Shown here: positions 1 to 61,967 of the stretch, in pieces
Layout of the letters: the number at the start of each line of letters is the position of its first letter
Numbering within the stretch: position 1 is the first letter of the stretch
Assembly: GCA_964017155.1 (NCBI GenBank)
Contig: OZ024855.1
Span: 52,784,664-52,848,663 of the forward strand
From: Oasisia sp. SBJ-2009
Taxonomy: Eukaryota; Annelida; Polychaeta; Sabellida; Siboglinidae
Direction of reading: 5' to 3'
DNA length: 64,000 nt
Program-made: the position numbers and the translations under genes
Notes under the pieces: generated by a model
What the model was told of the DNA's origin: nothing
What the model saw: the letters and a program-made list of their open reading frames with translations, nothing else
Databases searched by the model: none

Positions 1-230
1 CAACATCACGTTATCAATCCACCGTAACGAATGCATGCAAACACATTTCATATAACATGTGGTTGTTAGATTAGCCGATTGTCAACATCACGTTATCAAT
101 CCACCGTAACGAATGCATGCAAACACATTTCATATAAAATGTGGTTGTTAGATTAGCCGATTGTCAACATCACGTTTTCAATCCACCGTAACGAATGCAT
201 GCAAACACATTTAATGTAAAATGGATCTTG
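1..230. repeat. 82-bp minisatellite, array A
   Basis: An 82-bp unit (begins caacatcacgttatcaatcc) is repeated almost three times with few changes. The same unit in the same orientation occurs at 52200-52600 and 61446-61700. It lies in the intron just 3' (minus-strand sense) of a kringle exon, as it also does at 61.5 kb. Confidence 0.95.
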
Positions 231-248
231 CCGTGGCAACTGACTCAC

Positions 249-396
249 CAGGACACATCGGAATGTCACACAATTCCCAACGCTTCTCGGAATTTGTTGT
301 ATAGCACCAAGGCTTAGCCTCTACGCAGTATTTATTTTTTAAGTTACGACAGTAGTTGCCGTGTGTACCATCATTATGGCAGTTATGACTGTGCGG
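249..396 (-). CDS. Kringle domain exon, second half
   Basis: Reading from 396 down to 249, the exon encodes [10 protein letters not shown], then NYCRN, KPWCYTT and CDIPMC, the hallmark second half of a kringle (disulfide-bonded extracellular protein- or lipid-binding module). The acceptor is a cttccag at 397-403 and the donor a gtgagt at 243-248. The start is phase 0 and the end phase 1, as in the other kringle B exons here. One departure is RWELCDIP where RWEYCDIP is usual. The partner first-half exon was not found between this exon and 23 kb, so it may be decayed, hidden in repeats, or absent. It probably belongs to a paralogue downstream of the main gene, since the main gene appears to end at 23.3 kb. 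Confidence 0.85.
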
Positions 397-488
397 CTGG
401 AAGAGCGAAACGCACATATGAAGCACGCAGAACAAGACATGTATGGGCCATTTCCACGACATAAACTTTCATGGATACATTTGTAGTC

Positions 489-7335: not shown

Positions 7336-7571
7336 AGGAGTCACTGAGAATGGTGGTCACTGCCAGGGTGCTTGTCGTCCTCTGTGGTTCTTTTACGTCC
7401 CAAATTGAAACGGGACCGACATTAACGTGATTCTCCGATTCACGAGGGATACACAGTCCCCAATGTTGAGAGCCAGATTTTTTTTATATCACAACTGCCG
7501 GTACCGGGGATCGAACCCGTGACTCCGGCGTGGCAAGCGGGTGTGGTAACCACTACACCACCCGCGCTCTC
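7336..7571 (-). mobile_element. tRNA-derived SINE, copy 1
   Basis: On the minus strand the head (about 7569-7495) is tRNA-like: a TAGTGGTTACCAC A-box region, an anticodon arm with the TTGCCAC loop (as in tRNA-Gly GCC) and a GGTTCGATCCC B box. The body follows, with a short A run and conserved words such as gggacgtaaaagaacc. Confidence 0.85.
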
Positions 7572-7711
7572 TTAAAAATGAAATGAAACATTACATATAT
7601 GAGCAAATGGCTTAACTATTTTGGAAATTACTTTCTTAAGCAGGATCATGGTAATATCACTGAGATCAGTTAATCTTTTATCTTTACAATTTTGAACAGT
7701 TCTAATAATTA

Positions 7712-7947
7712 AGGAGTCACTGAGAATGGTGGTCACTGCCAGGGTGCTTGTCGTCCTCTGTGGTTCTTTTACGTCCCAAATTGAGACGGGACCGACATTA
7801 ACGTGATTCTCCGATTCACGAGGGATACACAGTCCCCAATGTTGAGAGCCAGATTTTTTTTATATCACAACTGCCGGTACCGGGGATCGAACCCGTGACT
7901 CCGGCGTGGCAAGCGGGTGTGGTAACCACTACACCACCCGCGCTCTC
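7712..7947 (-). mobile_element. tRNA-derived SINE, copy 2 of the tandem
   Basis: Nearly identical to copy 1 (tRNA-like head about 7945-7871); it differs by substitutions such as aaattgagacg for aaattgaaacg, showing recent amplification. Confidence 0.85.
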
Positions 7948-8087
7948 TTAAAAATGAAATGAAACATTACATATATGAGCAAATGGCTTAACTATTTTGG
8001 AAATTACTTTCTTAAGCAGGATCATGGTAATATCACTGAGATCAGTTGATCTTTTATCTTTACAATTTTGAACAGTTCTAATAATTA

Positions 8088-8323
8088 AGGAGTCACTGAG
8101 AATGGTGGTCACTGCCAGGGTGCTTGTCGTCCTCTGTGGTTCTTTTACGTCCCAAATTGAGACGGGACCGACATTAACGTGATTCTCCGATTCACGAGGG
8201 ATACACAGTCCCCAATGTTGAGAGCCAGATTTTTTTTATATCACAACTGCCGGTACCGGGGATCGAACCCGTGACTCCGGCGTGGCAAGCGGGTGTGGTA
8301 ACCACTACACCACCCGCGCTCTC
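8088..8323 (-). mobile_element. tRNA-derived SINE, copy 3 of the tandem
   Basis: Nearly identical to copy 2 (tRNA-like head about 8321-8247), followed by the third LINE-A segment and then continuous LINE-A sequence from 8464. Confidence 0.85.
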
Positions 8324-8463
8324 TTAAAAATGAAATGAAACATTACATATATGAGCAAATGGCTTAACTATTTTGGAAATTACTTTCTTAAGCAGGATCA
8401 TGGTAATATCACTGAGATCAGTTGATCTTTTATCTTTACAATTTTGAACAGTTCTAATAATTT

Positions 8464-52199: not shown

Positions 52200-52600
52200 C
52201 CCATGTGGTTGTTAGATTAGCCGATTTTCAACACCACGTTATCAAACCACCGTAACAAATGCAGGCAAACACATTTCATTAAAAAATGTGGTTGTTAGAT
52301 TAGCCGATTGTCAACATCACGTTATCAATCCACCGTAACGAATGCATGCAAACACATTTCATATAAAATGTGGTTGTTAGATTAGCCCATTGTCAACAAA
52401 ATATTATCAATCCAACGTAACGAATGCATTAAAACACATTTCGTATGAAATGTGGTTGTTAGATTAGCCGATTGTCAACATTACATTATCAATCCACCGT
52501 AACGAATGCATTCAAACACAATTCAGATGAAATGTGGTAGTTCGAATAGCTGATTGTCATCACACGTAACGAATGGATGCAAATAAACAGTATAGTAAGT
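52200..52600. repeat. 82-bp minisatellite, array B
   Basis: Four to five diverged copies of the 82-bp unit in the same orientation as arrays A and C. The last copy is broken at about 52600, where the 8.8-kb unit begins. Confidence 0.95.
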
Positions 52601-52639
52601 AAAGATCAATTGACCGTGGCGCAGTGCGAAGGGGAGGGG

Positions 52640-52900
52640 GTCAAACGTCAAGGGTCGAATGTCAAGGTCAAGGGTCACGTGTCAAGGTCAAGTGGCGCCC
52701 CATGGCGGATATGTCATGAACTAGTGGTACCCCCTTATGGACAGGTCACGAACTACAAACTAGGTCAAGGAACAAGTGGAGCCATCTGACGGATATGTCA
52801 GCTAATACCCCATAAATACGTGTGTCTTCTTTTTTAACCTACTTTTTATAATATACAAGATTTCAAGAGGCGATCGTGGCGAGAGCGGCGCGAAGAAGGA
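52640..52900. repeat. Left inverted arm of the 8.8-kb unit
   Basis: Matches the reverse complement of 61210-61440. Includes two TCAAGGTCA words (52644-52695), the extended half-site of some orphan nuclear receptors, and ends near the CCAAT cluster. Confidence 0.8.
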
Positions 52901-52999
52901 TGTACGGTTTTACTGTCCCGTCCTTGCTGTTTTTGGCCTACTACCACCACGTCCGCGCTATTTTCTAAAAATATAATTTCTACAAAATAATTTTTAGCA

Positions 53000-53130
53000 C
53001 ACCCACGTGTCCCCGAGACCACTCGTTTGTGATTGGTTGGTATTTTTCGGCACACTCGATTGTGATTGGTTGGTAATTTTCGGCGAAATTGATTGTGATT
53101 GGTTGATTTTCGGCACGCTCACGTGACCCA
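53000..53130 (+). promoter_or_regulatory. Promoter-like cluster: three inverted CCAAT boxes, two E-boxes
   Basis: A 33-bp unit repeats three times, each with GTGATTGGTTG (ATTGG at about 53032, 53065 and 53098). CACGTG occurs at 53004 and 53120. Spaced CCAAT boxes next to the outer arm suggest an NF-Y-type promoter reading inward. Confidence 0.5.
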
Positions 53131-53311
53131 AGTGTCGACTTGTGAACGTGTGTAAGACGAACGTTTTTTGAGGTTGTCATTATTCACTTGCATTCACATA
53201 AGCGAAAACCTAGAGTTATGCTGAGAGCAGGTTATACGTATGCAGAAGCCGCCAGCGGCCCCGTCCCTGTACCTCCCAGTGGTGGGACTGCGGGGTTAAC
53301 ACCCATTTCTT

Positions 53312-53720
53312 ATGGGGAGGCATTTACCTAACGCCAACACCAACACCACCACCACCCCCGGCAGCGACAGCGGATGGGGTTCGTGTGGTAAGTCTTTGTC
53401 AATGGCATATTTCGATTTACATTTTTTCGTGTTAACAATTTTTGAAAACGCGAATACGTATATTCTTGTAAATTACATGACTGAATCTCTCGTTCCTTCT
53501 TATTGTCGGAAGTCACCACCATCGCGGGGAGAGTTCAATTACCCGCACTGTGCGACGAGGCGGGACAATTTAACAAGGCACATCCGCCCCGGTCGTTGCA
53601 CTCGCAAGAGGACGACAGAGGACGACGCTTTGCACGCCATCGTGGTGAAACGTTATGGTAATATACTGTGCTATGTTTTCGCTTCCGTAAAAATGCCGCT
53701 TCCTACCACATGCAAAACAT
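53312..53720 (+). pseudogene. Decayed partial copy of the minus-strand zinc-finger gene
   Basis: A donor gtaagtc at 53388 follows an exon end like that of exon 1 of the minus-strand gene, and the intron start is conserved for about 150 bp. The acceptor is destroyed (attg where the intact copy has gtag). Downstream the zinc-finger halves are fused without the intron: FNYPHCATRRDNLTRHIRPG, then RCTRKRTTEDDALHAIV. The first zinc-binding cysteine is Y. It lies in opposite orientation to the gene at 56443-58497. Confidence 0.7.
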
Positions 53721-53975
53721 AACTTCCGTAAAAATGTCGCGTCCCTAACGTCCGTAACAAAATTTCCGGCAAAATGATGGCACGAACATACGTGCGTACC
53801 ACAACTTTCGTAAAAATGGCGGCGTTTCCTGTCCCATTCGTATCCTAACTTCCGTCAAAATGGCGGCGCTTCCCGTCCCAACCGTATCATAACTTTCGTA
53901 AAAATGGCGGCGCTTCCTGTCCCATCCGTAACCTAACTTCAGTAAAAATGGCGGCGCTTCCCGTCCCAATCATAT
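53690..53975. repeat. 44-bp tandem repeats with ETS/YY1-like words
   Basis: About six copies of a 44-bp unit with TAACTTCCGTAAAAATGGCG. The reverse complement contains CGGAAGT (ETS-like) and the plus strand AAAATGGCGGC (YY1-like). Inverted relatives occur at 55190-55350, 55470-55510, 56125-56210 and 57150-57235. Confidence 0.9.
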
Positions 53976-54255
53976 TATAAGTTATTGTGTCTTTTTAAAA
54001 CTATACCAAACAGGCCTTAACGCAGCGCCCTATGCAGTGTGCCGCCTCTCCTGGTAGTTAGGTCCCACGTATGCGACTAACATACCTTGTAACTTCAACG
54101 TTTCACCGCTATGACTTTATCAAATTCACGTATGTTTGGTGTTTACATGCGATAACTTTGACAAATTTTCATATTTTACTAGTGCGTACGCCTGCGTGTG
54201 CGTGTCGTGTCGTGTCTGTGTGTGACCGCGTATGTCCGTAAATGTTCGCGTGTGT

Positions 54256-54415
54256 CCGTGTCCGCGACCGTGTGTGTGTGTATGTGTGTATGTGCGTGCG
54301 TGCGTGCGTGCGTTTGTGTGTGCGAGTGCGAGTGCGAGGCGAGTGCGTGTGCGTGTGCGTGTGCGTGTGCGTGTGCGTGTGCGTGTGCGTGTGCGTGTGC
54401 GTATGCGTGTGCATG
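54256..54415. repeat. (TG)n/(CGTG)n/(GTGTGC)n compound array
   Basis: The hexamer part (54345-54412) is followed by tgcatgggatataatgcaagtt. The whole, with tgtctgtaaac-type flank, is repeated in inverted orientation at 59560-59660. Confidence 0.9.
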
Positions 54416-54589
54416 GGATATAATGCAAGTTGACAGACACCGTGGGTTTACAGACATGGTATGATTACAAAAAGTTGGGGTTAACTGATCGAAAATTGCT
54501 ATGTTTTTGTCCAGGACAAAACCATACCAATTTTTGATTAGTTAACCTGAACCTGTTTCTGTGTCTAACCCTAGTTAGTTGTTGTTTTG

Positions 54590-55630
54590 TCCGCTAGATG
54601 TCGCTGGCGTCTAATATAGTGAGTAGAGCGCAGTGGCTCAGGGGTAGAGCTTCGGACTCTCGACTACGAGAACCCGGGTTCGAATCCTGGCTGCGGCGTT
54701 AAAACCTTGGGCAAGTTTTTTCACTCTACATTGCTCCAGTTCACTCAGCTGAATTAAATGAGTACCTGGCTATAGACAGTGGTGGATATGTGTACGAGCA
54801 GCCTTCGCGCATTAATTGTAGCATATGGCTGGATGCTTCCCAGAGAAGCCGAGATGGTGTCTGAGTGAACAGGTCTGTCAGGGAAGTAAAGTGTAAAGCG
54901 CTTTGAACGGTCCTGAGGATTGGATATTGCGCTATATAAGAACTGCCTTTACTTTATGGTTATCCTCGAGATGGCGCTAACGTATAATGTAGTGTTAGGG
55001 TTATCCGCTAGATGGCACTGGTGTCTAATGTAGCGTTAGGGTTATCCGCTAGATTCGGGTTAGCGTTTAGCGTCGTGAGGTCGCAAACGAATATTTTTTC
55101 ACAAACCAACATTTTTCTAGATTTTGTTGGAAAGTTACAATAATGACTTAGTATAATACGAATACTTGACATAGTTGCCACCTCAAAAAGTTAAGTTATG
55201 TTATGGCTGTGGTCGAAACCACCATTTTCCCGGAAGTTGTGTTTTACACGTGAGAGGAATCATCCTGTTTATGGAAGTTATGTTTCTGCACGTGACCGGA
55301 AGCTTCATTGTTTACGGAAGTTACGTTTTACACGTGATAGGAGCCCATTTTTGGCAGATTCCTCTTTCTATCTCGTTAACTCGCTAAATGTTATGAAATT
55401 ACCACGTTGACTTTAGTAAAATACGAATATTTGCCAAGGTTATGGCCTCGAAACATAAAAAGGTATGTCATGACTGTGACCGAAGCCGCCATTTCACAAG
55501 AAATTCTGTTACGGAAGTAGTCTTGGTCTAGCCATGGTTTTCTATGTCAAACACTAATTAGTGGCTGTTTTGTTCGCTAGATGGGGCTAGCGTTTAACGT
55601 AGTGTCAGGTGTATCCGCTAGAGGGCACCA
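54590..55630. repeat. About 41-bp repeats with CTCF-like words
   Basis: Copies with CCGCTAGATGGCGCT-like cores lie at about 54591, 54964, 55005, 55045, 55573 and 55615, all in one orientation. Several match the general CTCF core (CCASYAGRKGGCRS) at all but one position. The unit also has gtctaatgtagtgttaggg. A SINE interrupts the array at 54626-54955. Confidence 0.8.
54626..54955 (+). mobile_element. tRNA-derived SINE
   Basis: The head (about 54626-54700) has a TGGCTCAGGGGTAGAGC A box and GGGTTCGAATCC B box. The body contains ggatgcttcccagagaagcc and ends in gcgctatataagaactgcc, a tail like the 3' ends of CR1/L2 LINEs such as LINE-D. Family differs from the SINE at 7.3-8.3 kb. Confidence 0.85.
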
Positions 55631-55789
55631 GGTTGTAAAGAAGTGCTGTCACAATGCAAGATTTTTCCACATTGTTTTAGATTTGATTACGAAAATGGTG
55701 GGAGTCGTAAGAAAAAAACATCAAGGTTCTAGGTTTATGATAGAATGTGCCAAAGTTTTCACACAGAAGGTTATGAAAGTACCAAGATG

Positions 55790-56065
55790 ACTTAGAAAAA
55801 TACGTCAAAGTTACAAAGTCATTGCGGTGAAATAAGTAAAATATGAAAAAAACTTGACAAAGTTATCACGTCGAAGCAGAAAATATTCTATTTTAATACA
55901 AGTTACAAGACTAACTTAGTTAAATTTGTGAAAACACCACCTGTCTAACGCAATGAAACGGTGAAACCATACGAAATGTTACGTAGTTAGCAAACTGACT
56001 CAGTCAAATAAGAAACCTTGGCAAGGTTGTCGCGTCGAAACTTTTAACTGGCACCAGTTTTAAAC
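55790..56065. repeat. Direct repeat partner of 59820-60095
   Basis: Shares long words (tctattt.a.tacaagttacaagactaac, caccacctgtctaacgcaat, aaccttggcaaggtt) with 59885-60090 in the same orientation; part of internal duplication within the 8.8-kb unit. Confidence 0.85.
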
Positions 56066-56341
56066 ATTATGACAATGGTCGATGGTGTAATTTTGCAAGA
56101 AACTGTGTTATGGTCCTGATCTGACCCGTCATTTTTACGGAAGTTGTGTGTTGCACGTGGTAAGAAGCGTCATTTGTAACGGAAGGTATGGTTTGCACAT
56201 GACATAAAACTGTCCTAGCCTCGTGAGTATGGATAGCACAACGACATATGTAAGTTACGTGAAGAACTTGATCTATGTCACATGCGACGTGTGAACTACA
56301 ATTTCATACTGAGAGAGAGATCATCCAATAAGGTTTGCACA

Positions 56342-56347
56342 TTTTTA
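56342..56347 (-). promoter_or_regulatory. Poly(A) signal of the zinc-finger gene
   Basis: AATAAA on the minus strand, about 96 bases past the stop codon at 56443-56445. Confidence 0.65.
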
Positions 56348-56442
56348 TTGAAACACAACACATGTATTTAGTCATTCCTAAAGCAGCTACATAACCTAAC
56401 GTTAAAACGTTATTTCGTCGTCGCTCTGCACAACACATGTAT

Positions 56443-56922
56443 TTACAGGTCATCTTTTAACGCGGCAAGTACCATAAGTTTAACATTATTTCGCGATAGC
56501 TCTGAAGGATACTCCTCCAACCAACTATTGATGGCATTCAACTGTTCGGGCGCCACGTCGGCTTGTGTAAGATCTACCTCGAGTAAAAGGGTCAACCAGT
56601 CTCGAATAACTGAAGTGGAGTTAACTTTCTTCACATCCTCGTCAAAGTCCATGTCAATTACAATATCATCAGGCAAGAGACAATCGTGTTTGAGTTGGCC
56701 ATGGTGGTCTAACTCGCAACCGTTGCAGCGTAGTTTCAAAAGCTCAGCGACACCGCATGTAACAGGATAGTCAATGGTAATGTTCACCTTACACGTAGAA
56801 GAAGTAGTAGTTGCGCAGTCAGACGGCTCCGTTGTGACATCGGTAGTAGGGTACGACGAACTTGGAACAGGGGATGTAGAACCTATACAAGTGGAGGCTT
56901 CGTCGCCGGTTTGAAGTTCGGC
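56443..56922 (-). CDS. Last exon of the 8.8-kb-unit gene (acidic protein with CxxC...HxC)
   Basis: The 480-bp exon starts after acceptor cgtgctgtttcag at 56923 in phase 0. It opens with a Ser/Thr-rich stretch (about residues 1-50), then RCNGCELDHHGQLKHDCLLP (a C-x2-C...H-x-C cluster that may bind zinc), an acidic DIVIDMDFDED, and helical RDWLTLLLEVDLTQ to ...MVLAALKDDL and stop. I do not recognise the family. Frame preservation, splice site and poly(A) signal argue that it is or recently was a real gene. It is the 3' exon of a four-exon model with 57258-57354, 58044-58151 and 58282-58497. Confidence 0.6.
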   Translation of the reverse strand, partial: AELQTGDEASTCIGSTSPVPSSSYPTTDVTTEPSDCATTTSSTCKVNITIDYPVTCGVAELLKLRCNGCELDHHGQLKHDCLLPDDIVIDMDFDEDVKKVNSTSVIRDWLTLLLEVDLTQADVAPEQLNAINSWLEEYPSELSRNNVKLMVLAALKDDL

Positions 56923-57257
56923 CTGAAACAGCACGCACGGATGCAATATAATGCAAAACCTCTAGGTGAGTGACGTTGTAGTTGGTGTGGCCGTTTCGTT
57001 TACTTTTCTTAATGGTGAGAGACACACATGTGCCTACCAAAAGTGTTCAGCTTGGACATCCGCATGCTTTCGTTTATAAGAGAAAGGTCTTTTGCACCAA
57101 CGTGGTACGTACATTAGCGCCACCGTTTTGGCGGGTGTTTTTGTTACGGACGGTATGTGAGCCGCCATTTTTTACGGAAGTTATGTTTCGTATGTGGTAG
57201 GAAGCGGGATTTTTAACGGAAACATACCACAGTATATTATTATAACGCTTAACTCAC

Positions 57258-57354
57258 CAAGACGGCGTCCAAGGTGTCGTCCGCCGCGGCCCTATTGCGA
57301 CGGGTGCAACGACCGTGGGACATATGTCTCTTCCTGTTACCCCGCCTCGAAAAA
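57258..57354 (-). CDS. Exon 3: second half of a C2H2-type zinc finger
   Basis: It follows acceptor acaatacag and precedes gtgagtt (phase 0 end). It encodes FSRRGNRKRHMSHGRC, then TRRNRAAADDTLDAVL. The F-x5-x2-H-x4-C pattern completes a C2HC-type zinc finger started in exon 2. The fused homologue at 53.6 kb reads RRDNLTRHIRPGRCTRK. The required start phase (one leading base) does not match the phase 0 end of exon 2 at its best donor, see finding. Confidence 0.6.
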
Positions 57355-58043
57355 CTGTATTGTGTCCAGGGGGATGCAATATAATGTTGAGGCCAGCCCG
57401 GAATGAAGCTAGGCACACGAAACGAATGGAGGCCACCTAAGGTCAACGTTTGCCGTCGCCCAGCCCCGGGCAGGAGAGGGCACTGTGACAGCCACCTGGC
57501 CGGTGACCTCGAACCGGCAGTTCCGCTGTATTCGATGACTTGGCAACAGGGTTTGTCGGTATCTCTGTTGGTTTTAACGAAATTTTCATCCCGCTGTCTT
57601 CATTGACTATACAGCGCGGTATTGTAACTCTGCGGGAATCCACTCTGCGATCTGTGCCTGGGGGGTTGGCTCCACTGTTCCAGTGGAGGGTGGGGTTGTT
57701 TTCCCCCCTTTACGGTTTCTGTCAATGTATACTTTCGCTTAACGCATGTATTTCTGTCGATACACTATTATGCATTACATTGTATCAGTATACATGCAAG
57801 TAGCTGATTGTACGATAGGCTTTTTGTTGTACTAGGATGCTTATCATTTACCATAGTACTGTATGCCTTTCAAGGTACAATCAGCCGAGCGCACACTTCA
57901 AGTGAGCGCCAGGCAATCCAGTTGTAAATAAAATATCTAGATTGCCATATTACCATTACAAGGTATTTTGTGTCTTATTGATCTACCGTAAACAGAGCCA
58001 GGCCCAGCTGTGGTTTATTAGGGAGTATTAAGGGCACACTTAC

Positions 58044-58151
58044 GAGCGGGAAGGGCGCAGACACGCAAAATGTCGTCCCGCAGTGCAAGCAATCGAACCC
58101 TGTCGGCGATGGTGGTGGTAGTGGTGGTGGTGGGACAGCGCGGACTTCCGA
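58044..58151 (-). CDS. Exon 2: proline-rich segment and first half of zinc finger
   Basis: A 108-bp exon between acceptor cgttcttgtag and donor gtaagtgt. In the frame continued from exon 1 it encodes PPPPLPPPSP then FDCLHCGTTF, the C-x2-C knuckle of a zinc finger. The donor is strong but leaves phase 0. Confidence 0.55.
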
Positions 58152-58281
58152 CTACAAGAACGAACGAACGAACGAACGAGATTTTTAGTCATGTAATGTA
58201 CATTAATATTTGTATTCGCGTTTTCCAAACTTGTTAACACGGAAGATTGAAATCGAAAATATGCCATTGACAAATACTTAC

Positions 58282-58497
58282 CACATGAACTGTTTCCGGG
58301 TCTTTACCCGACGCTGTCGCCACTGGGACCCGCTCAGTCGGATGACTGGTTGCCTCGTCGCTCTCGTCACTTGTGTTTTGCATGCCGACAACCGGGTTGT
58401 AGTAGCAGTACTCTGGGTGGTTCAGCATAGCGTTAGCCATGTCGTTGTCGTAGAACGAATGACAATCTCGAAAACCCTCCGTGTTATATACGTTCAC
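58282..58497 (-). CDS. Exon 1: start of the 8.8-kb-unit gene
   Basis: Begins at ATG 58497 and encodes 72 codons to donor gtaagtat (phase 0). The protein starts MNVYNTEGFRDCHSFYDNDM, has HPEYCYYNPVVG and an acidic/Ser-rich DESDEATSHPTE. Exon end and first about 150 bases of the intron are conserved in the inverted copy at 53.33-53.5 kb. An upstream non-coding or coding exon is possible, e.g. near 60594-60781. Confidence 0.6.
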
Positions 58498-58789
58498 ATG
58501 TTTTTTTTTATGGTAACGTGGGTGTGCTGAAAATTATTTTGTAGACAATATTTATTGTGGAAAATACAGCAGTCGTCGTAGTACGCGAAAAACAGCACGG
58601 ACGATGGATGTGACTACGACGTGTTTCTATTTATATGTTGGGAATGTTAGCGTCCTGGTACGTTCCAGAGTCAGGTATGATATTACTGCGCAGGCGCAAG
58701 TGTTCCGGTGTGGACTGTTTCAAGTCGACGAATAGGTAGCCGTGAGGTACGAACGTTGCGTCCCTGAATGCCTCTTGCATGTATTTTAC

Positions 58790-59570
58790 ACGACCCGTAA
58801 ACATCTGTTTTGTAAACGTAACTTGTCTGTCAACATTTGTTTTGTTTTGTAAACATAACTTCTCTGTAAACTTTTGTTTTATAAACATAACTTCTCTGTA
58901 AACTTTTTGGTTTGTAAACATAACATGTTTGTAAACAGGTTTTGTAAACATTTGTTTTGTCGTGTTTTGTAAACATAACTTGTCTGTAAACGTTTTTGCT
59001 TTGTTTTGTAAACATAACGTGTTTGTAAACTTTTTGTTTTGTTTTATATTTGTAAACATAACTTATCTGTAAACCTTTTGTTTTGTAAACATAACTAGTT
59101 TGTAAACTTTCTGTTTTGTTTTATTTGGTAAACATAACCTGTTTGTAAACGTTTTGTTTTGTAAACATAACACTTTCTGTTTTGTTTTGTAAACATAACT
59201 TCTCTGTCAACATTTGTTTTGTTTTGTAAACATAGCTTCTCTGTAAATATTTTTGTTTTGTTTTGTAAACACAACTAGTTTGTAAACTGTTTTGCTTTAT
59301 TTTGTAAACATAACGTGTTTATAAATTTACTGTTTTGTTTTGTTTTGTTTTGTTTTGTTTTGTAAACATAACGTATATGTAAACTTACTGTTTTGTTTTG
59401 TTTTGTTTTGCTTTGCTTAGCTTTGCTTAGCTTTGCTTAGCTTTGCTTTGCTTTGCTTCGCTTCGCTTCGCTTCGCTTCGCTTCGCTTCGCTTTGCTTTG
59501 CTTTGTAAACATAACGTGTGTATAAACTTATTGTTTTATTTTATAAACATACCTTTTCTGTAAACCCACG
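58790..59570. repeat. Degenerate TGTAAACATAAC minisatellite (forkhead-like)
   Basis: About 20 copies of ttgttttgtaaacataact with spacers ctgtaaac, period roughly 30-45. Each has GTAAACA, the core bound by forkhead factors. It passes into (TTTTG)n (59335-59410) and (GCTTT/GCTTA/GCTTC)n (59408-59508). Minus-strand KTNVYK-like frames across it are repeat artefacts. Confidence 0.9.
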
Positions 59571-59819
59571 GTGTCTGTCAACTTACATTATATCCCATGC
59601 ACACTCATACGCATACGCACACGAACACGCACACGCACTCGCTCTTGCACACGCACACGCACACACGCACACACACAGTTCAATTTGTCAAAACAACACC
59701 TGTGTAACACAATGAAACGTCGAAACGTTACGAAATGGAACGAGGTTAGCACACCGACTTAGTAAAATATGAGAAACAGGAGAATGTTATAGCATGTAAA
59801 CACAAAAAATACGTGAAAA

Positions 59820-60095
59820 TGACAAAGTCATCACGGTGAAACTTTGAAAAGTTGTGAAATGGTACAAAGTTGGCACACCGAGTTAGTAAAATATGAAAAA
59901 CTTGACAAAGTTATGGTGTAGAATAGAAAAATATTCTATTTACTACAAGTTACAAGACTAACTTAGTTCAATTTGTTTAAAACACCACCTGTCTAACGCA
60001 ATGAAACGGTGAAGCGTTACGAAATGGTATGTTGTTAGCACACTGACTCAAGCAAATAAGAAAACTTGGCAAGGTTATTGCGTGGAAACTGTACA
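59820..60095. repeat. Direct repeat partner of 55790-56065
   Basis: Same-orientation diverged copy, as described for the partner. Confidence 0.85.
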
Positions 60096-60110
60096 TGCTA
60101 CTAGTTGCAC

Positions 60111-60450
60111 AACATATGTAAGTTGGCTACGTGGAGAACGTGACATGTGTGTGCAACCTAGATTCTGGACATGGTAGCGGCGTGTGAACTACAAGTTTGT
60201 ATTGGTGGAAGAAATTATGTGTGACGTACATACGGGACAACACGCATGCGCACGCACGACATATGTAAGTTGCTTACGTGGCGAAGGTGACCTGTGTGTG
60301 CAACCTAGATTCTGGATATGGTAGCGACATGTGAATTACAATTTAGTATTGGTGGAAGAAATTCTATGTGATCTACATACGGGACAACATGCATGCGCAC
60401 GCACAACATATGTAAGTTGCTTACGTGGAGAACGTGACCTGTGTATAACA
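60111..60450. repeat. 147-bp tandem repeat (2.3 copies)
   Basis: Units start at 60111, 60258 and 60405 (aacatatgtaagttg...). A diverged single copy is near 56238-56330. Confidence 0.9.
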
Positions 60451-60593
60451 TAATGGACATGTGGTGATACCGCCATATGAATTAACGTGTTCAGACTTGT
60501 GAAGGAAGGGCCACTACGTGACAGATACAATGTATTAAACTGTTTTTTTCCCCACTGGTTGCCTAGCAACGTATTGTTCAACCGGTGACTTAC

Positions 60594-60781
60594 AGTAGCA
60601 GGTGGCCTAGCAAGTTGCACCGTCGATGGTTAGTGTACCAACCACTTGCAACATTACAACGTCGACCACTGAAGCTGACCGAGCCAGTGTCCCTCGATGA
60701 GAACACAGCAACCGACTGGCCTGGTCGGGAGGCCGTAAGCTTGGGTAGATGACAAGCCCGTGTTGCACCCAGACTGGACAT
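60594..60781 (-). CDS. Candidate 5' exon (low confidence)
   Basis: An ATG-initiated frame (MSSLGATRACHLPKLTASRP...) is followed by a consensus donor gtaagtc just before its stop. It lies between the right-end CCAAT boxes and exon 1 of the zinc-finger gene on the same strand, so it could be an upstream exon. No domain is recognised, and its frame link to exon 1 is untested. Confidence 0.25.
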
Positions 60782-61159
60782 GAAGGACCAGGTATGTTAG
60801 TCGCTTACGTGGGACCTAACTACATAACATTTTTGCATACTCCGCTCCAGTTGCATTAAGGGACACTACGTGACAGATACAATGTGTTTCATTGTTTTAT
60901 TATTTACTGCTGGTTGCCTAGCAAACTATTGTTGAACCGGCGACATGTGTACCATAGTGTGGTGTATTAAGCTCTGTTTTGGTATAGTTTAATACAATAA
61001 TTTATAACATTTTACCTATCTCCATGTTATGACACAAAGATGTATTCGGTTTTGATGATAAAGCCTTTTCATTAAAAATGTTAAAACCCTATTTGCTTAA
61101 AGGTATTGCTCCTCCAAAACTGCCTCCCCCCCAAAAAAAACATTTCCTACCTTCTCCGC

Positions 61160-61205
61160 AACAGCCAATGAAAACTCTTCTTCGTGCGCAACAGCCAATG
61201 AAAAC
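61160..61205 (-). promoter_or_regulatory. Two CCAAT boxes at the right end of the 8.8-kb unit
   Basis: A 30-bp unit with GCGCAACAGCCAATGAAAAC repeats twice (CCAAT at 61165 and 61195 on the plus strand). Mirrors the left-end cluster and may drive minus-strand (inward) transcription. Confidence 0.45.
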
Positions 61206-61209
61206 GCTC

Positions 61210-61440
61210 GCCAAGTTAGCCTCTTAATCTCTTGACAATTTTTAAAAGTAGTTTAAAAATAAGACACACGTATTTATGGGTTATTAGCTGAAGACATACC
61301 CGTAAGATGGCTCCACTTGTTCTTTGACCTACATGCCGCTCTCGCCAGGGTCGCCTCTTGACCTCTTGTCTATTTTTAAAAGCCCCACTTGACCCTTAAA
61401 CAAATAATACGCACGAATTTGGACAGTACTAGTTCGTGAC
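61210..61440. repeat. Right inverted arm of the 8.8-kb unit
   Basis: Reverse complement of 52640-52900, diverged; ends where the minisatellite resumes at about 61446. Confidence 0.8.
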
Positions 61441-61445
61441 TTAGA

Positions 61446-61700
61446 TTGGTTGTTAGATTAGCCGATTGTCAACACCACGTTATCAATCCACCGTAACGAA
61501 TGCATGCAAACACATTCCATATAAAATGTGGTTGTTAGATTAGCCGATTGTCAACACCACGTGGCACGTTACCCATCCACCGTAACGAATGCATTCAAAT
61601 ACATTTCATATAAAATGTGGTTGTTAGATTAGCCGATTGTCAACACCACGCTACCAATCCACCGTAGCGAATGCATGCAAAAACATTTCATGTAAAATGG
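61446..61700. repeat. 82-bp minisatellite, array C
   Basis: Three copies, one carrying a 5-6 bp insertion (gtggcac). Same orientation as arrays A and B, and in the same place relative to the kringle exon as array A. Confidence 0.95.
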
Positions 61701-61724
61701 ATCTTGCCGTGGCAACTAACTCAC

Positions 61725-61869
61725 CATGACAAAATGGAATGTCACAATATTCCCAACGCTTCTTGGGATCTGTTGTATAGCACCAAGGCCTATAATTTCC
61801 GCATTCTTTAGTGGGTTCGTTACGACAGTAGTTGAGTTCACCAATTCGATGGCAGGCGTGTTGGTGCGG
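61725..61869 (-). CDS. Kringle domain exon, second half
   Basis: The 145-bp exon follows acceptor cgctcttccag (phase 0) and ends before gtgagt (phase 1). It encodes [37 protein letters not shown] and FCHG, a well-conserved kringle second half with its cysteines intact. Its first-half partner should lie beyond 64000 or in unread intron. As the most upstream domain exon in the window, it is frame-compatible with the kringle first half at 47722-47831, giving a second kringle in the same gene. Confidence 0.9.
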
Positions 61870-61967
61870 CTGGAAGAGCGAAACACACATATGAAGCACG
61901 CAGAACAAGACAATATGTATGGGCCATTTTCACGACATAAACTTTCATGGATACATGTGTAGTCGTT

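What the first reader, a model, noticed from the sequence alone, without database searches (positions are those of the whole stretch)
52610..61445. 8.8-kb inverted-end unit with its own spliced gene, inserted in a minisatellite
The 82-bp minisatellite lies on both sides. The outer 200 bp are inverted copies, both ends carry paired CCAAT boxes facing inward, and further inverted and direct repeats lie inside. No known transposase, integrase, polymerase or replication protein was recognised, yet it contains an apparently spliced gene. That combination fits no standard transposon class I know and could be an undescribed large element or an inverted-duplication amplicon.
Basis: partly seen in the sequence, partly recalled or inferred. 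Interest (0 to 1): 0.85.

Follow-up and report, generated by a model that had tools for sequence, protein, structure and literature searches.

The report
Worn palindromic Polinton in tubeworm-like genome
The 8.8-kb unit is a worn, non-autonomous relative of a Polinton (a virus-like jumping DNA element) in a tubeworm-like animal genome; its family includes giant near-perfect mirror-image copies that look like fossils of faulty viral DNA replication.

Summary
The unit is real, but it is neither an unknown class nor a local rearrangement. It is a degraded, non-autonomous Polinton (Maverick) derivative. A search with its left end gives 40 further main matches in the host genome, on 12 contigs counting the window's own (capped list, a lower bound). 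The best-kept relative has exact AG termini and a 6-bp target duplication.

The window copy keeps its left terminus (52589); its right end stops about 145 bp short, at 61443. The "spliced gene" is a promoter and first exon leading to a zinc finger, which in four other copies precedes a PolB N-terminal piece. Fused to it are remains of an RPA-like gene. The last 63 residues of a Polinton packaging ATPase lie just upstream (58822-58634).

The mirrored genes have a likely cause: some relatives are palindromes with the same terminal genes on both arms (12.5 kb, arms 96% identical; about 27 kb, 94-96%). I infer snap-back during protein-primed replication; this is not shown. No copy with integrase was found between such ends. 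One salmon precedent is in print (PMC2584663). Verdict: new variant of a known kind.

The parts
52203..52567 (.). 82-bp minisatellite, left flank (host)
   Evidence: Tandem Repeats Finder, 4.5 copies
52589..52760 (+). left terminus (begins AGTATAGTAAG) and subterminal repeats
   Evidence: aligned to the ends of four relatives; scores 109, 115, 97 and 61 against shuffle maxima 56, 68, 59 and 58, so narrow for C1
52761..52883 (+). left inverted-repeat arm
   Evidence: pairs with 61331-61207, 83%; found in 20 of 20 loci fetched by their match to the left end
53020..53110 (+). three inward ATTGG (CCAAT) boxes, putative promoter
   Evidence: same arrangement in translated relatives P0134 and P0153
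53106..53793 (+). left, broken mirror copy of the gene's 5' part: leader, intron piece 53379-53499, finger 53513-53647
   Evidence: inverted match to 58534-57107; frames; relatives
53803..53970 (+). 44-bp tandem array
54054..54181 (+). inner modules mirrored at 60781-60823 and 59760-59848
   Evidence: second module repeated in both arms of the C8 copy, L039
54347..54472 (+). inner module mirrored at 59539-59664 (90%)
   Evidence: also in both arms of L039
54624..54960 (+). tRNA-derived SINE-like insert
   Evidence: tRNA at 54627-54698; body matches 19414-19248 at 68%; the name SINE is mine
55776..56067 (+). direct repeat of 59824-60115 (79%)
56446..56923 (-). last exon: tail of the RPA-like protein (family motif CxxCxxxHPSQxxHxC, altered here)
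   Evidence: 68 relatives besides the window's own record; alignment
56951..57108 (-). frame-shifted remnant of the end of the RPA-like OB-fold domain; the core is missing
   Evidence: matches in two frames, 57101-57042 and 57040-56951
57258..57350 (-). distal part of the C2HC finger
   Evidence: score 72 to the left finger, 0 of 5000 shuffles; relatives
58046..58151 (-). proximal part of the finger, separated from the distal part by about 690 bp
   Evidence: frames
58280..58440 (-). first coding exon (MANAMLNHPEYCYYN...), followed by GTAAGT
   Evidence: matched by RPA-like relatives
58634..58822 (-). C-terminal 63 residues of a Polinton packaging ATPase
   Evidence: 81% to Ridgeia P0122; 61% to L003 over 51 residues
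58797..59540 (.). TGTAAACATAAC-type tandem array that cuts into the ATPase frame
61165..61199 (-). two inward CCAAT boxes
   Evidence: read
61207..61331 (-). right inverted-repeat arm
61332..61443 (-). right subterminal piece; the terminal ~145 bp present in relatives are missing
   Evidence: position of the 61440 match inside relatives, e.g. L019
61447..61699 (.). 82-bp minisatellite, right flank (host)

Best explanation
The unit is an old, worn copy of a non-autonomous Polinton (Maverick) family in a tubeworm-like genome. Shown: its ends are shared with many other places; well-kept relatives have AG termini and 6-bp target duplications; copies carry pieces of PolB's N-terminal region, the packaging ATPase and an RPA-like gene; some copies are palindromes with the same terminal genes on both arms. 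Inferred: an autonomous Polinton replicates by protein-primed synthesis from either inverted end. A nascent strand that snaps back, or switches to the displaced strand, makes a molecule carrying the same end twice. Such molecules keep both origins and both integrase sites, so they can be copied and inserted in trans while coding for nothing complete. The repeated end carries a CCAAT promoter and a first coding exon, which explains the inward promoters and mirrored genes. The window copy is such a palindrome, later rearranged: about 145 bp of its right end were lost, tandem arrays and a SINE-like insert were gained, and the genes decayed.
For: Copies: 40 further main matches to the left end. 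Ends: C8 has target duplication AATGGG with AGTAGTAATGTA at both termini; C6-17.6 Mb has CACATA with AG on both sides; C1 has ATCGAG with AG on one side. End and gene together elsewhere: P0153 and P0183 start in the inverted end and run into the gene start; P0134 runs from the ATPase end through CCAAT boxes into the gene. ATPase: 58822-58634 is 81% identical to P0122; full-length relatives lie with PolB and/or integrase in L009, L003 and L004 and with PolB in four own-genome loci. PolB: in four copies (C8 on both arms, C6-52.03, L044, L048) the finger module is followed on the same strand by an N-terminal PolB piece, 48-54% identical. RPA-like: PF08646 in 30 of 33 members at E <= 0.1. Palindromes: C8 96.0% over 1,620 columns and 96.3% through its interior; C6-42.4 Mb 95.7% over 1,564 and 93.8% over 8,878 columns.
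Against: No integrase in 42 of 42 loci L011-L052, nor in L057-L060, so the autonomous partner is not identified. The four intact ATPase/PolB loci L053-L056 (3.6 kb held each) show neither a window-type end nor the RPA-like gene. PolB pieces were found in 4 of 42 loci, all N-terminal, none catalytic; the ATPase in 1 of 42. Target duplications are clear in 2, fair in 1 and 5 of 6 by eye in 1 (C14) of the 8 pairs examined; the rest are unclear or absent. The window's own target duplication cannot be seen. The 27-kb palindrome shows no Polinton protein apart from the RPA-like gene starts at its ends (L027, L028), so its identity rests on its ends. Window arm order is not symmetric. The snap-back step is inference.
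Confidence: 0.85

Rival explanations
1. The element is Polinton-derived, but the mirror symmetry arose after integration, by host-driven inverted duplication or by head-to-head insertion of two copies, not by faulty replication.
For: The 27-kb C6 copy has a third family end near its middle; the C6 52.9-53.6 Mb matches share one score and look segmentally duplicated; the window arms differ in order.
Against: The C8 palindrome is bounded by a single exact target duplication with different flanks on each side, as expected if it was inserted already symmetric; in L022 the inverted arms include the whole RPA-like gene.
Confidence: 0.3
2. It is a Helitron or Helitron relative, since RPA-like domains are known from Helitrons.
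For: RPA-like domain; [quoted passage not shown]
Against: Inverted termini and target duplications; Polinton ATPase and PolB pieces in the same elements. Rep/helicase was not searched for specifically.
Confidence: 0.02
3. A local inverted duplication of host DNA in a minisatellite, with no mobile origin.
For: The minisatellite and an adjoining stretch are duplicated at the window's start (85.6% over 436 columns).
Against: 40 further main matches to the end; target duplications at relatives; 68 relatives of the last exon.
Confidence: 0.01
4. The large palindromes are chimeric-read assembly artefacts, and the family is an ordinary deletion derivative with long inverted repeats.
For: Raw reads were not available.
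Against: Arms differ by 4-6% in two copies and by more in others (82%, 89%, 89%), not expected of one molecule folded back; C8 has a clean target duplication.
Confidence: 0.08

Closest known systems
Polinton / Maverick elements (gene set per PMC4028283 and PMC6431247, passages seen)
   Same: FtsK/A32-type packaging ATPase, PolB, inverted ends, AG termini and 6-bp target duplication in relatives (the last two as hallmarks are recalled); protein-primed replication of the class per PMC4028283.
   Different: No complete gene in the window copy; no integrase seen between such ends; RPA-like gene at the end; mirror symmetry.
Palindrome-containing Polinton-like insert near Chinook salmon gh1 (PMC2584663, passages and section 8 seen)
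   Same: About 20 kb with a 10-kb palindrome that is part of a Polinton-1.
   Different: One locus in fish; no family, end or mechanism analysis in the parts I saw.
End-duplicated defective genomes of adenoviruses (recalled; not found by the one search)
   Same: Same end on both sides, needs a helper, protein-primed replication.
   Different: Free viral DNA, not integrated germline copies.
Helitrons with an RPA-like domain (PMC6431247, passage seen)
   Same: RPA-like single-strand-binding domain.
   Different: Different ends and replication genes.

Membership tests
Polinton / Maverick | inverted terminal repeats with AG termini | tested here: met
   C8 and C6-17.6 Mb on both sides, C1 on one side; window left end 52589; window right end truncated
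Polinton / Maverick | 6-bp target-site duplication | tested here: met
   relatives: AATGGG and CACATA, fair ATCGAG, of 8 pairs examined; not testable for the window copy
Polinton / Maverick | FtsK/A32-type packaging ATPase | tested here: met
   only the last 63 residues in the window; nearly whole in L045. Pfam on L009: Adeno_IVa2 and also RNA_helicase above cut-off, Pox_A32 below; on L004 Pox_A32 above cut-off
Polinton / Maverick | protein-primed DNA polymerase B | tested here: inconclusive
   N-terminal pieces in 4 of 42 loci; in the window only the finger
Polinton / Maverick | rve integrase | tested here: not met
   0 of 42 loci L011-L052 and none in L057-L060; present in L009 and L003, which are not shown to share the ends. 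Filed therefore as a derivative, not a complete Polinton
Polinton / Maverick | capsid proteins and adenain-like protease | not tested
   no query was run
Helitron | no inverted termini and no target duplication | tested here: not met
   both are present in relatives
Local inverted-duplication amplicon | single locus without shared ends | tested here: not met
   40 further main matches

The most novel reading that the evidence does not exclude
End-duplicated palindromes are a regular, heritable by-product of Polinton protein-primed replication. In this lineage they became a self-sustaining parasite of autonomous Polintons, an integrated counterpart of defective interfering genomes. Their repeated end is a compact cassette (replication and integration end, CCAAT promoter, first exon, RPA-like gene) that may compete with the parent element and dampen it.
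Probability: 0.3. Interest if true: 0.85.

Novelty: new variant of a known kind. Interest (0 to 1): 0.6.

Why it matters
Polintons are thought to be integrated viruses (PMC4028283, passages), but I know of little direct observation of their replication (recalled). A family of palindromic copies with intact ends would be a fossil record of how protein-primed replication goes wrong, and breakpoints and arm identities could be measured in one genome. It would also mean that some large palindromes in animal genomes have a viral origin, and that animal Polinton derivatives can carry an RPA-like gene at their ends; two searches gave no report of that.

Tried and rejected
Transcription-factor arrays. 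Several words are enriched in the element (CGGAAGT 9 against 0.78 expected; AAAATGGCGGC 5 against none in the rest of the window; TGTAAACA 17 against 1.28), but others are not (RCCAAT 8 against 10.9; CACGTG 7 against 3.9, within the shuffle range). I chose the words after looking, they sit in tandem repeats, and the TGTAAACA array cuts into the ATPase frame, so I claim no function.

Searches that led nowhere: five IMG/VR scans gave no relative (the two loci are not relatives); the first genome-contig scan gave none. Of the 8 stretches, 5 encode ATPase relatives (L003, L004, L005, L006, L009); L007 and L010 are weak or chance and L008 showed none. Pfam, PHROGs, NCBIfam and PDB do not name the ATPase part of P0122. 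Pfam finds nothing in the window's exon, finger and tail pieces that were given. Both AlphaFold models were too poor to use (mean pLDDT 34.8 and 43.3); no fold search was run. Finger against the L009 PolB start by sequence alone: 9 of 5000 shuffles reach the score for the left finger, 415 of 2000 for the right distal piece and 939 of 2000 for the right proximal piece; that is weak or nil, and the claim rests on adjacency in other copies. My first tests of the left finger used a wrong frame (protein 8, the 'left' row); searches use the right one. A Polinton paper search on adenovirus-type defective palindromes gave 9 papers, none opened.
Full report
What was checked. The 82-bp minisatellite stands on both sides of the unit and again at the window's start. 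Self-comparison gives inverted arms 52761-52883 and 61331-61207 (83%, E 6.5e-28), a second piece 52842-52889/61382-61335, mirrored gene-like segments (52919-53008/58603-58516, 53106-53181/58534-58458, 53379-53499/58290-58170, 53556-53793/57349-57107), mirrored modules and a 292-bp direct repeat. Elsewhere in the window only the minisatellite with its right neighbour, a SINE-like body, a short match near 41.6 kb and simple-repeat-like sequence match it.

The host. Every relative with an informative name comes from the vent tubeworm Ridgeia piscesae (one search has one record named only 'hypothetical protein'). The own genome holds 764,102,534 bases in 33 contigs. I infer a vestimentiferan or close kin; the species is not identified.

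The gene. The minus-strand last exon (56923-56446) finds 69 proteins among 109 candidates, its own record included. One relative, P0068, joins a similar first exon and tail to a Rep_fac-A_C domain. Searches with P0068 residues 1-190 and with alignment A3 give 45 of 207 and 117 of 5617 candidates. The hits list 158 distinct contig lengths, 94 of them at least 100 kb, which I take as a stand-in for distinct contigs. PF08646 matches 30 of 33 members of A3 at E <= 0.1; the best solved relative is 'Replication factor A protein 1', 6i52 (E 0.0019). In the window the core of this domain is missing and only a frame-shifted end remains (57108-56951). So the family gene encodes an RPA-like protein with an unusual tail, and this copy is broken. 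Splicing is inferred from sequence words only.

The Polinton link. P0122, a Ridgeia gene model, runs from the RPA-like part into a sequence whose last 63 residues match window 58822-58634 at 81%. Family libraries and PDB did not name it. A degenerate DNA pattern in the prokaryote genome collection found 8 stretches, 5 of which encode a relative. Two of them are contigs in a bin of an endosymbiont of Escarpia laminata, a tubeworm (recalled), so presumably host DNA. L009 carries PolB (DNA_pol_B_2 2.8e-9), the ATPase (Adeno_IVa2 8.5e-5 and RNA_helicase 2.4e-4 above cut-off, Pox_A32 0.0013 below) and an integrase with chromodomain (rve 3.5e-13, Chromo 3.2e-8); L003 has the ATPase and integrase; L004 the ATPase (Pox_A32 5.5e-5, above cut-off) and PolB (2.3e-45). 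That is the gene set given for Polintons in PMC4028283 (passages). The own genome gave 151 matches to this ATPase, 223 candidates and 150 scored, many in open frames. The four fetched stand beside the C-terminal third of PolB, but show no window-type end or RPA-like gene in the 3.6 kb held.

Copies and ends. One search returned 65 matches to the left 501 bases. I kept 41 as main (the window included; 24 small pieces dropped), on 12 contigs; two of them adjoin (C2 50.09 Mb), and pairs belong to one copy, so copies are fewer than ends. The first look had 840 candidates and scored 40, so this is a lower bound. Seven inward-facing pairs span 1.07 to 26.5 kb, plus one nested pairing. All 20 loci, chosen by their left-end match, also match the window's right end, as mirror ends must. 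Of 8 pairs examined for target duplications: C8 is exact (AATGGG, AGTAGTAATGTA on both sides); C6-17.6 Mb has CACATA with AG on both sides; C1 has ATCGAG with AG on one side; C14 matches 5 of 6 by eye; C11 and C6-52.03 give ambiguous coincidences in repeats; C5 and C6-42.4 give none. The window's left terminus is 52589. Its right end stops about 145 bp short, judged from where 61440 falls inside relatives, so its own target duplication cannot be read.

What the mirrored gene is. The finger recurs as peptide in L015, L019, L021, L023, L024, L025 and L026, and the surrounding module as DNA also in L017, L018, L044 and L048 (L044 repeats L018's place). In C8 (both arms), C6-52.03 (L026/L040), L044 and L048 a PolB N-terminal piece follows on the same strand, 48-54% identical. 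So the 'spliced gene' looks like the 5' part of a PolB-type gene sharing promoter and first exon with the RPA-like gene. The RPA-like domain is seen in 16 of 42 loci L011-L052, several of which repeat a place. In L022 an RPA-like gene lies inside each 1.27-kb arm (89%). In L045 the first exon is followed by the ATPase.

Palindromes. C8 (44655866-44668392, 12.5 kb): outer pieces 96.0% over 1,620 columns; the 9.3-kb interior piece folds on itself at 96.3%, with PolB pieces at mirrored positions. C6 42.378-42.406 Mb, about 27 kb: 95.7% over 1,564 and 93.8% over 8,878 columns, with a third family end near the middle and no Polinton protein inside. Others are partial: L025/L026 82%, L022 89%, L046 89%. 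L047/L048, L043/L044, L045, L051 and L049/L050 showed no long inverted arms in the stretches held, and L052 only a short one of 248 bp, so not every copy is shown to be a palindrome. Arms differing by 4-6% are not expected from folded-back reads; raw reads were not available. The window copy reads as a worn relative: arms 73-90%, changed order, arrays and a SINE-like insert added.

Mechanism. Shown: shared ends, target duplications in relatives, Polinton gene pieces, symmetric copies. Inferred: protein-primed replication from either end, snap-back or strand switch giving end-duplicated molecules, insertion in trans. I hold Polinton derivation at about 0.9 or more and this origin of the symmetry at about 0.55; the joint confidence field is set for the derivation with the mechanism as favoured account.

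What is known. PMC2584663 reports a 20-kb Polinton-like insert with a 10-kb palindrome in Chinook salmon (passages and section 8), found among 44 papers, 12 listed, one opened. 'Polinton' with 'RPA-like': 0 papers; with 'replication protein A' and 'single-stranded DNA': 2, one opened by passages without such a report, one not opened. PMC11071308 has no 'RPA' or 'OB-fold' (word counts and passages). An annelid survey mentions Maverick in Capitella (PMC8556966, passages). PMC9921365 does not contain 'Helitron' (word count). The interest lies in the palindromic family more than in this worn copy.

Noticed in passing
L003, L009 (QGON01000010.1, QGON01000029.1); L004, L005, L006: Contigs in prokaryote bins (endosymbiont of Escarpia laminata, Photobacterium, Ignavibacteria, Bathymodiolus symbiont) encode animal-type Polinton proteins, so they are probably host contamination.
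   Followed up: partly
own genome G000: 151 matches to the Polinton packaging ATPase, many in open frames: the genome seems rich in Polintons (capped list).
   Followed up: partly
G000 C12 2755017, 2857980, 2958989; C6 52.9-53.6 Mb: Matches of identical score at regular distances suggest segmental duplications that contain Polinton pieces.
   Followed up: no
7336-8462: Three 376-bp tandem copies at 99% match, each with a predicted tRNA-Gly.
   Followed up: no
61654-61929 (-): Kringle domain piece (PF00051, 9.1e-10) beside the right minisatellite; window 1-427 is an 85.6% copy of 61470-61900.
   Followed up: no
53803-53970, 54954-55054, 58797-59540, 60107-60444: Short tandem arrays rich in words resembling transcription-factor sites; enrichment tested only after looking.
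   Followed up: partly
57360-58045: About 690 bp split the right finger; whether it is an intron or an insert is unresolved.
   Followed up: no
P0016, P0078 families: Tail motif CxxCxxxHPSQxxHxC conserved in the family; no Pfam domain for it was found and no IMG/VR match to its DNA pattern.
   Followed up: partly
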